Shown here piece after piece: positions 1-3,571 of a stretch of DNA of 42,125 bases. The stretch comes from an uncultured Allomuricauda sp. (GTDB taxonomy: Bacteria; Bacteroidota; Bacteroidia; Flavobacteriales; Flavobacteriaceae), in the NCBI GenBank assembly GCA_937899065.1, contig CALBPG010000162.1:1-42125 (forward strand), given 5' to 3'. Every line of letters starts with the position of its first letter. Position 1 is the first letter of the stretch. The notes beneath the pieces were generated by a model. That model saw only the letters and a list, made by a program, of their open reading frames with translations. It ran no database searches and was not told where the DNA came from. Made by a program: the position numbers and the translations under genes.

Positions 1-69
1 GTTAACCAATAGTTTGAGCAACTCTCCTCAGGTATACCCCGAACCGCCTATTATGCCTGCTTTAATCAT
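1..69 (-). pseudogene. argC: N-acetyl-gamma-glutamyl-phosphate reductase, N-terminus with an in-frame stop (partial)
   Basis: The minus strand opens with an ATG at 69 and encodes MIKAGIIGGSGYT, then TGA, then GELLKLLVN in the same frame. This is the Rossmann nucleotide-binding start of ArgC, which reduces acyl-glutamyl-phosphate to the semialdehyde in arginine synthesis. Family members read GYTGGEL or GYTAGEL here, so the TGA at codon 14 most simply reflects one substitution of a Gly or Ala codon. The gene lies 45 bp downstream of argG, the usual order in flavobacterial arg operons. The rest runs off the left edge, so I cannot tell whether further damage exists. It could be a true nonsense mutation or a base-call error. 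Confidence 0.75.
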
Positions 70-114: not shown

Positions 115-1320
115 TTACTTATTTTTTTGGTTGACATGGTTCGCAATTTTCCCTGGATTTGAAAGGATTTTGATAAATCCTTTGGCGTCATCGGCCGTCC
201 AGCCTTTGTTCATTTCGCCGTAGCTGCCAAAGGAAGCATTCATCAAATCATGGGGAGAGGCAATGCCATCCAACTCAAAGCGATAGGGATGTAAAGTCAC
301 AAATACATCTCCCGAGACATTCTTTTGGGTATCGGTCAAAAAGGCTTCGATGTTTCGCATGACTTCATCCAAATAGTTGCCTTCGTGCAAAAGCATACCG
401 TAAAAATTCCCAAGCTGCTCTTTTTGATATTGCTGCCATTTGCTGAGCGTGTGTTTTTCCAGCAAATGATGGGCTTTTACGATAATCAATGGTGCCGCTG
501 CTTCAAAACCTACTCTTCCTTTGATGCCGATAATGGTATCCCCAACGTGAATATCCCTTCCGATGGCATATTTGGATGCGATTTCAGACAGTTTTTCAAT
601 ATTGGCGACTGGGCTAGCGGTTTCACCATCGATAGCAGTAAACTCTCCGTTGGTAAACGTTAATCTTACCTTTTTGGGCAGTTCTTTTTCGAGCTGACTT
701 GGATAGGCGCTCTCAGGTAGTGCTGAGTGCGAGGTCAAAGTTTCGTCACCTCCGACGGAAGTACCCCAAAGCCCTCTGTTGATGGAATATTTAGCCTTTT
801 CCCAAGAATAATCAATCCCTTGACTTTGCAAATATTGGATTTCGGCTTCTCGGGATAGTTGGTTGTCGCGAATCGGTGTTATGATTTCAATCTCGGGAGC
901 TATAATTTGAAAGATCATGTCAAAACGCACTTGGTCATTTCCAGCGCCAGTACTCCCATGCGCTATGGCGTCAGCTCCTATTTTTTTGGCGTGTTTTACA
1001 ATTTCAATTGCCTGAACAATTCGTTCGGCACTTACTGATAGGGGATAGGTGTTGTTTCGCAATACATTTCCATAAATCAAATATTTCACCACCTGACTAT
1101 AAAAGGATTCTACTGCATCAATGGATGTGTAACTGGTCGCGCCGAGTTGTAAGGCCTTTTGTTCGATTGCTTGGATTTCGTCGGAAGAAAATCCACCCGT
1201 ATTTACACTTACCGCATGTACCTCCCATCCTTCTTCTTTTGATAGATATTTGGCACAATATGAAGTATCCAATCCACCGCTATAGGCTAAAACAAGTTTT
1301 TTCATTTGGTTTTTTTTCAT
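115..1320 (-). CDS. argG: Argininosuccinate synthase
   Basis: ArgG condenses citrulline and aspartate with ATP to argininosuccinate, the penultimate step of arginine synthesis, in the cytoplasm. The 401-residue product has the ATP-pyrophosphatase P-loop AYSGGLDTS at residues 12-20, and the length is normal for the family. A second ATG at codon 6 (1305) gives the more usual N-terminus MKKLVLAYSGG and may be the real start. It follows the GNAT gene by 57 bp and precedes argC in the same direction, forming an arginine operon. No defect is visible. Confidence 0.95.
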   Translation of the reverse strand: MKKNQMKKLVLAYSGGLDTSYCAKYLSKEEGWEVHAVSVNTGGFSSDEIQAIEQKALQLGATSYTSIDAVESFYSQVVKYLIYGNVLRNNTYPLSVSAERIVQAIEIVKHAKKIGADAIAHGSTGAGNDQVRFDMIFQIIAPEIEIITPIRDNQLSREAEIQYLQSQGIDYSWEKAKYSINRGLWGTSVGGDETLTSHSALPESAYPSQLEKELPKKVRLTFTNGEFTAIDGETASPVANIEKLSEIASKYAIGRDIHVGDTIIGIKGRVGFEAAAPLIIVKAHHLLEKHTLSKWQQYQKEQLGNFYGMLLHEGNYLDEVMRNIEAFLTDTQKNVSGDVFVTLHPYRFELDGIASPHDLMNASFGSYGEMNKGWTADDAKGFIKILSNPGKIANHVNQKNK

Positions 1321-1377: not shown

Positions 1378-1992
1378 CTATTTGGTTTTTTTCTTTAGGA
1401 AAAGGTTCTGCTTCATTTCTTTTAATCGCTTAAATGCTTTTCCATTGATTTTTTTGGCGTTCTTTTTCTCTTCTTTGGGGTCGTGCAGCATACCTGTACA
1501 CAGGCACATTTTGCGTTCGGTTCGTGTAAGGATGTCGAAGTTTTTACAAGTTTGACAGCCTTTCCAAAAATCAGGGTCGTCGGTTAGCTCGGAGAAGGTT
1601 ACGGGTTTATACCCCAATTCGTAGTTCATTTTCATGACGGCTAACCCAGTAGTGATACCAAATATCTTGGCATCTGGAAACTTTTGTTTGGAAAGTTCGA
1701 AGATGGCTTTCTTGATTTTTTTGGCCAAGCCTTGATTTCGGAAATCAGGATGGACGATAAGCCCGGAATTTGCTACGAAGTTTTTGTTGCCCCATACTTC
1801 AATGTAACAGAAGCCGGCAAAAACATCGCCTTCCAAGGCAATGATGGCGTTTCCATTTTGAAGCCTTTGAATGATGTATTCCGGAGAGCGCTGCGCGATA
1901 CCGGTTCCCCGCACTTTGGCGGATTCGGTTATGGTGTCACTAATAATTTGCGCGTATTTAATGTGGGATTCGTTAGCAACTTCGATTTTCAT
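1378..1992 (-). CDS. GNAT-family N-acyltransferase of the arginine operon
   Basis: This is a 204-residue GNAT protein. The acyl-CoA-binding motif A shows as HPDFRNQGLAKKI around residues 81-93 (R85, Q87, G88). The C-terminal third is unusual: a cysteine cluster (Cys146, Cys149, Cys163, Cys165) that could bind zinc, followed by a Lys-rich tail. It is the first structural gene of the arg operon. Some Bacteroidota make arginine through N-succinylated intermediates and lack a classical ArgA, so I infer that this enzyme acylates glutamate in the first step. The sequence alone cannot tell acetyl from succinyl donor. Confidence 0.8.
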   Translation of the reverse strand: MKIEVANESHIKYAQIISDTITESAKVRGTGIAQRSPEYIIQRLQNGNAIIALEGDVFAGFCYIEVWGNKNFVANSGLIVHPDFRNQGLAKKIKKAIFELSKQKFPDAKIFGITTGLAVMKMNYELGYKPVTFSELTDDPDFWKGCQTCKNFDILTRTERKMCLCTGMLHDPKEEKKNAKKINGKAFKRLKEMKQNLFLKKKTK

Positions 1993-2040
1993 TGCTGATA
2001 CGATTTAAAACTTAAAATAAAATAGCTCTGGAGGTTTTGC

Positions 2041-2062
2041 GGAAATGGACTCACCTATTTCC
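2041..2062 (-). promoter_or_regulatory. Hairpin in the arginine operon leader
   Basis: On the minus strand, GGAAAT-A-GG and CC-ATTTCC pair to give an 8-bp stem with one bulged A and a 5-nt loop. It lies between the candidate leader peptide and the GNAT start, followed by an AU-rich stretch. A second possible pairing, GCACCTT (2119-2125) with AAGGGTGC (2074-2081), encloses the Arg codons of the leader peptide. Ribosome position could therefore decide which hairpin forms. Whether it acts by termination or by masking translation is not resolved. Confidence 0.4.
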
Positions 2063-2079
2063 ATAACTGAAGTGCACCC

Positions 2080-2160
2080 TTACGGGCGACGGCGGGGCGC
2101 GAATGTACGAACAGAAGCAAGGTGCTCAACTGAAATAAATATGTTCGCTTGTGTTTTCAT
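2080..2160 (-). CDS. Candidate arginine leader peptide (26 aa)
   Basis: A short reading frame starts at ATG 2160, ends at TAA 2080-2082, and lies 87 bp upstream of the GNAT-argG-argC operon. The last nine residues are RTFAPRRRP, so four of the last nine codons are Arg, three of them in a row (CGC CGT CGC). A codon run for the operon's end product just before a stop, followed by alternative hairpins, is the layout of amino-acid attenuators. I infer that ribosome stalling on Arg codons when charged Arg-tRNA is scarce raises expression of the operon. The call rests on position and composition only. Confidence 0.6.
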   Translation of the reverse strand: MKTQANIFISVEHLASVRTFAPRRRP

Positions 2161-2167
2161 GCTGGGT

Positions 2168-2175
2168 TAAAAGTA
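2168..2175 (-). promoter_or_regulatory. Possible -7 element of the arginine operon
   Basis: The minus strand reads TACTTTTA, one base from the Bacteroidota -7 consensus TAnnTTTG, with a few bases between it and the leader-peptide ATG at 2160. Transcription would start almost at the leader peptide, as expected for an attenuator. No convincing -33 TTG is seen at the right distance. Confidence 0.35.
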
Positions 2176-2194
2176 CAAATTAATTTTTTCCAGC

Positions 2195-3571
2195 CTAGTG
2201 ATGGGTGTTTTTTTTGAAGAATTGGAACAAATTCCCCCGGTTTCTTGAAATTTCATAAAATAAAAACCCAAACACAACAAGATATTCAACGCTGAGCAAC
2301 CACAAATTCTCTTGGTATTCAGGGTTTGCATAGGCTGCGTAGCTTAGGACAACAACAGTTGTCCACGCCAAAGTAAAGCGATAACCTCCTGCCAAACCTA
2401 AAAACAAAAGGGTAACCAAATACCACGGATGCAAGGTGCTGGATAACAGAAAATATAAAGTGAGCGCAAATAAAATTGAGGTCATGAGCGTTTTGGGTAG
2501 CTCATTTTTTCTAAAGAAAGCCATACCCGCCGTTACCAAAACCACCAGCAGTGCAATAGTGCTCCCATAACTTTTGACCAAAAGCCATGGCTTAGCATCG
2601 AAAAAGTGAACCCCGATAGCTTTGATTAAGTTATAGACACCTGCATTGAATTCAAAATTGGAAAACCACAGCCCAATGGTTTTACCATAATTACCTGCAA
2701 AGTTTGGGTCGTAGAATGGTAGAAAGAGTAGTACACAACTCGCAATAACCAGGAGATAAAAACCAATACTTTTTTGTATACCTAGAAACCTAAGAAATAA
2801 TGGCAAAAAAAGAATAGGCAAAAGTTTAGTGAGGATAGAAAGGGCGTACACCGGCGCCGCCAGACTCCAATTTTTCTTTAAGATGAGGTATAGCGCCAAA
2901 ACCATAAAAAACAGCATGACTCCCTCGAAATGAAGATTTCCAGTGAGTTCAATGATTACCAGCGGGTTTAAAAAGTACCAGAAAATAGTTTGTTTTGGTT
3001 TCCTTAGAATATCCAATAGTCTCTTTCCGAAGAACAGGATACCCAAATCTGCCAGAATGATTTGCAATCGTAACACGATGACACTCCCAAGAATACTTTT
3101 TCCGCCAAAAAGGGCAGCTAGGGCAAACAAGGCTTGATTGAAGGGAGGGTAATTGCTAAAATGCTTCGCGCTAAGTGCACCCATACCTTCATGGAGTTGA
3201 GTATAATTAGCGATGGGAATTTCCTTCCAATCTAGAATTTCGTTAGGGGTATACAAATATGGATTTAATCCGTTGATGACCAAGTTGCCATCCCAAATGA
3301 AACGATAAAAATCCTGAGAAAGATTCGGCGTAGCCCACAAAAAAACCAATCGAAAAAGCACGCCAACAACAACCAAGAATTTAAAATTCCATTGAGCGGT
3401 TTGAACCAGCTTTACACTAAAGAAAAAAAGTGCTCCGTAAAGCGAAATCAATTTGATAAAATCAGTCCGGACCAAATCATGTGCAAAGCTGATGTATAAT
3501 AAGATGCTTCCTATGGATAGGAGTAATGGAATTTTAAGTACTACGAAATGCTTGCGCAATGGACTGGGCAT
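2195..3571 (-). CDS. Polytopic membrane glycosyltransferase (GT-C/GT87-like, DUF2029-type)
   Basis: This 458-residue protein is mostly hydrophobic, with around ten or more membrane segments. Near residue 85 it has an acidic motif, SQDFYRFIWDGN followed by GLNPY. The D-x-x-R-x-x-WDG plus NPY pattern occurs in GT-C mannosyltransferases of the GT87/MptB type, which move a sugar from a polyprenyl-phosphate donor to a lipid or glycan on the outer face of the cytoplasmic membrane. Donor and acceptor cannot be read from the sequence. It lies upstream of the arg operon on the same strand but about 200 bp away, with the arg leader between, so it is probably transcribed separately. Confidence 0.7.
   Translation of the reverse strand: MPSPLRKHFVVLKIPLLLSIGSILLYISFAHDLVRTDFIKLISLYGALFFFSVKLVQTAQWNFKFLVVVGVLFRLVFLWATPNLSQDFYRFIWDGNLVINGLNPYLYTPNEILDWKEIPIANYTQLHEGMGALSAKHFSNYPPFNQALFALAALFGGKSILGSVIVLRLQIILADLGILFFGKRLLDILRKPKQTIFWYFLNPLVIIELTGNLHFEGVMLFFMVLALYLILKKNWSLAAPVYALSILTKLLPILFLPLFLRFLGIQKSIGFYLLVIASCVLLFLPFYDPNFAGNYGKTIGLWFSNFEFNAGVYNLIKAIGVHFFDAKPWLLVKSYGSTIALLVVLVTAGMAFFRKNELPKTLMTSILFALTLYFLLSSTLHPWYLVTLLFLGLAGGYRFTLAWTTVVVLSYAAYANPEYQENLWLLSVEYLVVFGFLFYEISRNRGNLFQFFKKNTHH

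What the first reader, a model, noticed from the sequence alone, without database searches (positions are those of the whole stretch)
2041..2160. Candidate arginine leader peptide and attenuator
A 26-codon frame (2080-2160, minus) ending in RTFAPRRRP-stop lies directly ahead of the GNAT-argG-argC operon, close behind a possible promoter. Two alternative hairpins follow or enclose the Arg codons: GCACCTT with AAGGGTGC, and the stem at 2041-2062. The composition and layout are seen in the sequence. That it works as an Arg-sensing attenuator is inference. I know of no standard description of such a leader in this group, but I could not search.
Basis: partly seen in the sequence, partly recalled or inferred. 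Interest (0 to 1): 0.75.

Follow-up and report, generated by a model that had tools for sequence, protein, structure and literature searches.

The report
Arginine-codon leader before arginine-synthesis genes
In many marine relatives of this bacterium the arginine-making genes are preceded by a tiny gene ending in arginine codons and by a conserved RNA hairpin, which together probably let a stalled ribosome report arginine shortage in a family where the usual arginine repressor was not found.

Summary
The 26-codon frame (2080-2160, minus) starts 7 nt after a Bacteroidota -7 box and ends RRRP-stop. The window and its 29 closest GNAT relatives all have such a frame; by a strict motif 94 of 110 family loci do.

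Leader Arg codons are nearly all CGC/CGT (402 of 420), against 277 of 926 in ribosomal-protein genes. This favours sensing of one Arg-tRNA.

The 2041-2062 hairpin (P3) has a covarying stem and a nearly fixed loop (GGUGNGUCC). It lies 23-28 nt after the stop in the 99 loci whose stop is in hairpin P2. The window has no terminator, unlike the hisG leader of the same genome; 13 of 120 loci have a T-rich tail after P3.

ArgR was found in 0 of 299 family genomes; in 12 other phylum genomes checked it precedes argG.

Best reading: a ribosome-sensing arginine leader working like Salmonella speF orf34, output unproved (Rho, mRNA decay or a factor binding P3). A new variant of a known kind.

The parts
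2168..2175 (-). -7 promoter box TACTTTTA (TAnnTTTG type); predicted start a few nt before the ATG, so the leader mRNA is leaderless or nearly so
   Evidence: sequence; TTGTAnnTT(T/A) followed by a nearby ATG in 42 of 138 loci, the in-frame ATG 7-10 nt after it; consensus from passages of PMC9723704 and PMC7366714; TSS itself inferred
2080..2160 (-). leader peptide ORF MKTQANIFISVEHLASVRTFAPRRRP-stop
   Evidence: third-position excess of differences in codons -5 to -10 (724/571/989 at positions 1/2/3 for 321 pairs chosen by nucleotide identity)
2086..2094 (-). control codons CGC CGT CGC (Arg-Arg-Arg), followed by CCG and the stop; a further CGT at 2107-2109
   Evidence: 103 leaders: codon -2 Arg in 103, codon -3 Arg in 99, CGC/CGT in 402 of 420 Arg codons of the last 14 codons
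2115..2127 (-). P1, weak hairpin inside the ORF (GAGCA-CCT-TGCTT)
   Evidence: similar hairpin at the same place in many relatives by eye, but mean folding z-score no better than a GNAT coding control (-1.04 against -0.97): suggestive only
2075..2088 (-). P2, hairpin CGCCC-GUAA-GGGUG holding the last Arg and Pro codons, with the stop codon in its loop
   Evidence: 93.5% of cells paired, one of 5 pairs with double changes (CG to AU in 5 rows); z-score -1.91; partly constrained by coding
2063..2074 (-). spacer between P2 and P3, fixed in length, not in sequence
   Evidence: stop end to apical GG of P3 is 23-28 nt in the 99 loci with the stop in the P2 loop
2041..2062 (-). P3, hairpin GGAAAU-A(bulge)-GG-UGAGU-CC-AUUUCC; near-invariant apical part, covarying stem, no U-run after it in the window
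1993..2040 (-). unstructured, G-poor stretch between P3 and GNAT
   Evidence: G 5%, C 17% over 118 loci; mean folding z-score +0.17 over 103 loci
1378..1992 (-). GNAT acetyltransferase, first gene of the operon (possible N-acetylglutamate synthase, inferred from place)
   Evidence: Pfam PF00583 over cut-off
115..1320 (-). argG, argininosuccinate synthase
   Evidence: TIGR00032 over cut-off; PF00764 and PF20979

Best explanation
It is a ribosome-sensing arginine leader of the GNAT-argG operon. Transcription starts almost at the leader's AUG. The first ribosome reads a short ORF whose CGC/CGT codons cluster at its end. When tRNA-Arg for CGY codons is poorly charged, the ribosome halts on the Arg codons that form the 5' arm of P2. 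When arginine is ample, it runs on to the stop in or just after P2 and leaves. The position or presence of that ribosome, at a fixed distance from hairpin P3, decides whether the operon message is continued and kept. The output is most likely not an intrinsic terminator. The likeliest forms are factor-dependent (Rho) termination or mRNA decay in the open stretch after P3, blocked when the ribosome halts upstream, as in Salmonella speF. Shown: the ORF, its conservation, the codon bias, P2/P3 and their spacing, the absence of a terminator in the window and of detectable ArgR in the family. Inferred: the TSS, the direction of control, the sensing of tRNA charging and the output step.
For: Conserved ORF with Arg codons directly ahead of the arg operon in 30 of 30 close loci (window included) and 94 of 110 family loci. 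One match per matching genome with model R1, some of which supplied its sequences. Codon-level selection: outside codons -2 and -3, 200 of 218 Arg codons are CGY, against 277 of 926 in ORFs of the ribosomal-protein cluster of 10 of these genomes and 69 of 251 in GNAT genes. Synonymous bias fits tRNA sensing (theory in PMC1183508, passages read). In 20 of 120 P3 loci the R-P-stop motif in the P2 loop is missing. In 17 of these the best frame still has Arg-Arg there, two have a single Arg, and one (L294) reads FRRPA-stop by eye; the stop lies elsewhere in most. So the codons, not the stop, are the fixed part. P3: 7 of its 8 pairs show double changes; for P2 and P3 together 0 of 500 shuffles reach the covariation score. 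In 99 loci the stop-to-P3 distance is 23-28 nt while P3-to-GNAT ranges 48-104 nt. ArgR: 0 of 299 family genomes; 72 of 198 phylum genomes; argG downstream of ArgR on the same strand in the 12 best-scoring loci held.
Against: No terminator in the window and no conserved pair of exclusive hairpins was found, so the step from ribosome to operon is not identified. But 13 of 120 P3 loci do have a T-rich tail (5 or more T in 8) after P3, so termination in some relatives is not excluded. A Pro codon before the stop and some conserved residues (F/P) with synonymous variation (Pro at -4, 26 leaders: CCA 9, CCT 8, CCC 7) suggest the peptide itself may also matter. In speF, the nearest parallel, frequent Arg codons worked as well as rare ones and the Arg codon next to the stop was not needed (PMC6386406, passages), so codon choice need not be decisive and the parallel is imperfect. 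In the commonest form a ribosome at the stop should not quite reach P3 (helix base 17 nt after the stop in the window; footprint size recalled). Minimum-energy folds of the whole leader contain P2 in 83 and the apical P3 pair in 60 of 99 loci. The C-over-G bias after P3 that would suit Rho is weak (C 17%, G 5%; loci classed as without P3: C 14%, G 9%). Model R1 finds nothing in 360 of 395 genomes of the order (strict filters), among them many of one large genus of this family (g128) that has GNAT but no such leader in the four genomes read. Leaderless mRNAs are only 5.5% in F. psychrophilum (PMC9723704, passage). No expression data.
Confidence: 0.65

Rival explanations
1. Nascent-peptide arrest (TnaC-like): free arginine, or the RRP-stop peptide itself, stalls the ribosome at termination, and the stalled ribosome controls the operon.
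For: Arg-Pro-stop in all 103 leaders collected by the P2-loop stop motif (the motif itself requires the CCN codon before the stop); recurrent FPRRP / F.PRRRP ends with synonymous variation at Pro. TnaC also ends in a Pro codon before its stop (recalled; only the start of the abstract of PMC8429421 was seen, in listings).
Against: A peptide sensor does not need CGY codons, yet 200 of 218 Arg codons outside codons -2 and -3 are CGY against 277 of 926 in ribosomal-protein genes. In 20 of 120 P3 loci the R-P-stop motif is missing; the stop is mostly several codons further on, and in one (L095) the residue before the stop is Thr. Upstream peptide sequence is poorly conserved.
Confidence: 0.15
2. 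Classical transcription attenuator with mutually exclusive terminator and antiterminator.
For: Leader peptide with control codons. The hisG leader of the same genome (SHHHL codons) has a hairpin followed by TTTTGTTTTT, so the organism appears to use the scheme. PMC9723704 section 19 (read) reports strong clues for it ahead of amino-acid operons in Flavobacterium psychrophilum. In 13 of 120 P3 loci the 8 bases after P3 hold 5 or more T; this raised the odds given here slightly.
Against: 0 terminator-like sites in window 1900-2300 (shuffles: mean 0.6); no such T-rich tail in 107 of 120 P3 loci, in a region that is 38% T anyway; the proposed alternative pairing is not conserved; the loop of P3 is conserved, which a terminator does not need.
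Confidence: 0.1
3. P3 is the site of a dedicated trans-acting factor (protein, or arginine itself), and the leader ORF only places or delays the ribosome, so two inputs are combined.
For: Bulge, two G-C pairs and UGNGU loop almost invariant while the stem varies (rows were mostly picked by that loop, which 101 of 110 loci have); the inner G-C pair is replaced by A-U in four rows and U-A in one; model R1 finds one match per matching genome.
Against: No factor is known; the loop conservation could also serve RNA geometry with P2, since P2-P3 spacing is fixed. GNAT with its Cys cluster and basic tail, one candidate, keeps the cluster in genomes without P3.
Confidence: 0.3
4. P3 is a DNA operator palindrome rather than an RNA hairpin.
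For: It is an inverted repeat near the promoter.
Against: Many G-U pairs kept in the stem (up to 26 rows at one pair), arms vary while the centre is conserved, and the position is locked to the leader stop.
Confidence: 0.03

Closest known systems
Salmonella speF leader orf34 (speFL; PMC6386406, abstract, outline and passages read)
   Same: Short ORF near the 5' end with consecutive Arg codons; no intrinsic terminator found in the leader; a hairpin downstream of the stop; ribosome place at Arg codons or at the stop decides RNA structure; Rho and RNase G are the outputs there.
   Different: Controls a decarboxylase; its Arg codons are rare ones early in the ORF (codons 12-13), could be swapped for frequent ones, and the Arg codon next to its stop was not needed; the ORF belongs to PF10940, and no Pfam or NCBIfam family matched the leader here. 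Here the control codons are CGY at the very end and P3 has a conserved loop.
Ribosome-mediated attenuators of amino-acid operons (trp, his type; theory in PMC1183508, passages)
   Same: Leader peptide just behind the promoter with codons of the pathway's product, and codon choice limited to one isoacceptor group.
   Different: No terminator in the window and no conserved competing pairing found.
TnaC and other arrest peptides ending at the stop codon (recalled; listing only)
   Same: Pro codon before the stop in most members.
   Different: Codon bias and moving stop codons speak against an obligatory stop-codon arrest.
Staphylococcus aureus rbfL (PMC13009471, passages read)
   Same: uORF that senses arginine limitation through Arg codons.
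   Different: Stalled ribosome covers the next start site; rare AGG codon; target is a biofilm regulator.
ArgR/AhrC arginine repressor
   Same: Stands ahead of argG in the 12 loci of other Bacteroidota that were checked.
   Different: Protein regulator; not found in the 299 genomes of the family searched.

Membership tests
Ribosome-mediated transcription attenuator (trp/his type) | short translated ORF close behind the promoter | tested here: met
   in-frame ORF directly behind the -7 box in 39 of 42 loci with that box; translation itself not shown
Ribosome-mediated transcription attenuator (trp/his type) | control codons for the amino acid made by the operon | tested here: met
   Arg at codon -2 in 103 of 103 and at -3 in 99 of 103 leaders collected by the stop motif; CGY in 402 of 420 Arg codons
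Ribosome-mediated transcription attenuator (trp/his type) | terminator hairpin with U-run before the first gene | tested here: not met
   0 terminator-like sites in window 1900-2300; 107 of 120 P3 loci have no T-rich tail after P3, 13 do; hisG leader of the same genome as positive control has one
Ribosome-mediated transcription attenuator (trp/his type) | conserved competing (antiterminator) pairing | tested here: not met
   pairing of the P2 3' arm with the upstream ORF equals shuffled control in 103 leaders; other pairings were not tested systematically
Ribosome-mediated transcription attenuator (trp/his type) | expression rises when the amino acid is short | not testable with these tools
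   needs reporter or RNA data
Arrest peptide acting at the stop codon (TnaC type) | stop codon and last residue fixed | tested here: not met
   100 of 120 P3 loci show the R-P-stop motif in the P2 loop; in the other 20 the stop mostly lies elsewhere and once the last residue is Thr
Arrest peptide acting at the stop codon (TnaC type) | amino-acid rather than codon conservation | tested here: inconclusive
   Pro at -4 varies synonymously, Arg hardly does
Rfam cis-regulatory family | match at gathering score | tested here: not met
   0 matches in the window; three hits far below gathering scores, E 1.3-4.3, in 1980-2230
ArgR control | ArgR C-terminal domain PF02863 in the genome | tested here: not met
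   0 of 299 family genomes; control genomes ring in 8 of 14
speF orf34-like leader | homologous ORF (PF10940) | tested here: not met
   no Pfam or NCBIfam match for the 26-aa leader up to E 10; a 26-aa query has little power

The most novel reading that the evidence does not exclude
A family-wide regulatory RNA took over from ArgR: a leader peptide that reads charging of one Arg-tRNA is geometrically coupled (23-28 nt) to a small conserved hairpin, P3, that is itself a recognition site for an unknown RNA-binding factor or for arginine. This would be a two-input leader class, mostly without a terminator, so far without a name.
Probability: 0.25. Interest if true: 0.78.

Novelty: new variant of a known kind. 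Interest (0 to 1): 0.62.

Why it matters
It offers an answer to how a large bacterial family without detectable ArgR could control arginine synthesis. It also gives a single-copy leader with a conserved hairpin of unknown partner and no terminator in the window, in a phylum whose translation start does not rest on Shine-Dalgarno sequences (PMC9723704, passages) and whose post-transcriptional control is little studied. The combination of CGY codons, fixed P2-P3 spacing and a conserved P3 loop makes precise mutants possible.

Tried and rejected
Second copies in the genome: patterns for P2 and for P3 with up to 3 mismatches gave only this site, apart from three P2-like sites at the mismatch limit. 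The bare loop AGGTGNGTCC occurs 12 times against 8 for the reversed-pattern control. Several of these fold by chance (one, L128, into a similar hairpin); by eye none of the others has the leader beside it.

Anti-Shine-Dalgarno pairing of the P3 loop (AGGUG): rejected, because four rows of A1 replace the inner G-C pair by A-U, which breaks AGGUG but keeps the hairpin.

P2 5' arm pairing with the P3 loop as a switch: considered; loci with another P2 sequence (CGCACG type) keep the same P3 loop (by eye), so not supported.

GNAT C-terminal Cys cluster and Lys-rich tail as P3 binder: the cluster is also present where P3 is absent, and the tail does not follow P3; left open, not supported.

P1: not above control.

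Rho site: weak composition evidence only. That control set of loci classed as without exact P3 also held loci with variant hairpins (L076, L080, L093, L104, L280) and two fragments (L304, L305).

A first codon-position count (482/387/783) kept only pairs sharing at least 3 of 6 amino acids, which favours third-position differences, and its shifted frames are no real control. It was redone with pairs chosen by nucleotide identity.

Rows dropped: 9 of 110 loci lacked the exact P3 loop. Six with variant hairpins (L093 doubtful) were put back into alignment A1; L070, L099 and L110 have none; near-identical rows (3 or fewer differences) were removed before A1. Upstream regions were read for 110 loci plus 28 more distant ones (two of them GNAT fragments), not for all 198 GNAT genomes. 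Only the 80 listed pattern loci were used at first; all 118 were checked.

Literature: no description of an arginine leader in this group in the listings of searches (open-access library only; supplements of PMC9723704 not readable here).

Full report
Observation. The frame at 2080-2160 (minus) encodes MKTQANIFISVEHLASVRTFAPRRRP-stop. It is followed by GNAT (1378-1992) and argG (115-1320) on the same strand. A Bacteroidota -7 box lies 7 nt before the ATG, so the transcript probably begins within a few bases of the start codon (inference from the TAnnTTTG consensus given in passages of PMC9723704 and PMC7366714).

Conservation. GNAT was found in 198 of 299 genomes of the family. The upstream region was read for 110 loci, the window's own included. 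The window and its 29 closest relatives all have a 22-29 codon ATG ORF ending R-R-P or R-P-R-P then stop, 84-98 nt before GNAT. By a strict motif 94 of 110 have such an end. In more distant loci the ORF often starts with GTG or TTG, or the stop lies elsewhere. Of 120 loci with P3 (from these 110 plus 28 more distant loci searched), 100 show the R-P-stop motif in the P2 loop. Of the other 20, 17 have Arg-Arg across the P2 zone in the best frame, L082 and L296 have a single Arg, and L294 reads FRRPA-stop by eye. Their stops lie mostly 6-16 nt before the P3 apex, in one case within P3 itself. GNAT lies 48-100 nt downstream on the same strand in 115, and the other 3 end 17, 74 and 108 nt after the element. 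The 80 listed titles include Maribacter, Zobellia, Muricauda/Flagellimonas, Winogradskyella, Cellulophaga, Kordia and Tenacibaculum. With covariance model R1, 35 of 395 genomes of the order match, 34 of them in this family, one match each; the one outside is marginal (E 7e-4). In the phylum draw 10 of 198 match, all in the family. Several of these genomes supplied sequences to the model, and the strict filters lose weak matches. A large genus of the family (g128, unnamed) has no R1 match in any genome listed; in four of its genomes GNAT is present but no such leader was seen.

Coding. After the promoter box the first ATG is in frame and open to the stop in 39 of 42 loci; the three others are ATGs 1-3 nt after the box. 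Differences in codons -5 to -10 peak at the third position (724, 571, 989 over 321 pairs with at least 50% nucleotide identity among 50 loci; 58, 41, 121 at 70%).

Codon choice. In the last 14 codons of 103 leaders 402 of 420 Arg codons are CGC or CGT. Leaving out codons -2 and -3, which also serve P2, it is 200 of 218. ORFs of at least 60 aa around rpsC (the ribosomal-protein cluster) in ten of these genomes use CGY for 277 of 926 Arg codons and prefer AGA, and 30 GNAT genes use it for 69 of 251. The sequences are related, so the counts are not independent, but the contrast is large. Selection on synonymous Arg codons fits sensing of the tRNA that reads CGY (theory: PMC1183508, passages) and is not expected if only the peptide mattered. 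It is not proof: in speF, frequent and rare Arg codons worked alike (PMC6386406, passages).

Structure. On alignment A1 (101 rows) hairpin P3 has double changes in 7 of 8 pairs and 95% of cells paired. Together with P2, 0 of 500 shuffles reach the covariation score and 5 of 500 reach the number of doubly changed pairs; this control ignores relatedness. A separate count gives 5.85 contiguous pairs per row against 3.76 with arms shuffled. The apical part GGUGNGUCC is in 95 of 101 rows, but rows were mostly picked by that motif: 101 of 110 loci have it, 6 more have variants, 3 have none. G-U pairs in the stem speak for RNA. P2 (CGCCC-GUAA-GGGUG) is kept with one doubly changed pair. P1 is not above control. 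In the 99 loci with the stop in the P2 loop, the distance from stop to P3 apex is 23-28 nt, while P3 to GNAT ranges from 48 to 104 nt. P3 is therefore placed with respect to the leader, not to the next gene. In minimum-energy folds of the whole leader, P2 appears in 83 and the apical P3 pair in 60 of 99.

No classical attenuator in the window. No terminator-like site is present in 1900-2300. The hisG leader of the same genome, read as a control, has a His-rich peptide and a hairpin followed by a U-run.

ArgR. The ArgR C-terminal domain is in 0 of 299 genomes of the family and in 72 of 198 of the phylum. In the 12 best-scoring ArgR loci, which alone were checked, argG lies downstream on the same strand; in one of them (L311) about 600 nt away, in the others close. 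None of the 10 genomes with R1 matches in the phylum draw has ArgR. The leader thus sits at the operon head where other Bacteroidota carry ArgR; replacement is inference.

Mechanism. The best-supported part is the sensor: ribosomes slow at CGY codons on the 5' arm of P2 when the Arg-tRNA is short. The output is not shown. The nearest tested parallel is Salmonella speF, whose orf34 leader has Arg codons, a hairpin behind the stop and no intrinsic terminator, with Rho and RNase G as outputs (PMC6386406, abstract, outline and passages). By analogy, halted ribosomes here would keep the operon message going or intact. The conserved loop of P3 goes beyond that parallel and suggests a binding partner.

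Known or new. Rfam has no family for it; Pfam and NCBIfam have none for the peptide. PMC9723704 (section 19 read) reports strong clues for leader-peptide attenuation ahead of amino-acid operons in Flavobacterium psychrophilum, without naming arginine in that section. The arginine leader with P3 was not found described in the searches listed under Tried and rejected. I file it as a new variant of ribosome-sensing leaders.

The T-rich tails in 13 loci led me to raise the classical-attenuator rival from 0.07 to 0.10 and lower the main reading from 0.66 to 0.65.

Noticed in passing
window 28-30 (minus), argC start at 69: The presumed argC frame (MIKAGIIGGSGYT; name from recall of the ArgC start) meets an in-frame TGA 13 codons in, close to the end of the contig; a broken gene or an end-of-contig error.
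   Followed up: no
L277 (own genome C241), upstream of hisG: His leader peptide MKRTTSHHHLYSCAQAR-stop with a classical hairpin and U-run terminator; also starts a few nt after a likely promoter box (read by eye).
   Followed up: partly
L292, L293, L295, L297 upstream of GNAT: Four genomes of a genus without the Arg leader (g128) have instead what looks by eye like a long open frame, nearly free of Arg codons in three of the four, that runs into the GNAT start.
   Followed up: no
window 1378-1992 and GNAT relatives: The GNAT protein carries a C-terminal GCxxC...CxC cluster and, in most of those printed, a Lys-rich tail beyond the acetyltransferase domain; the cluster is in all relatives printed.
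   Followed up: partly
window 2195-3571: The gene upstream of the leader looks like a GT87/MptB-like mannosyltransferase (MptB just over, GT87 just under its cut-off); by eye the close relatives show a similar coding end at the same place.
   Followed up: no
L062, L065, L068, L072, L084, L086, L089, L100, L281, L286, L290, L294, L296: In these 13 loci P3 is followed by a T-rich tail, so P3 might act as a terminator in some lineages.
   Followed up: no
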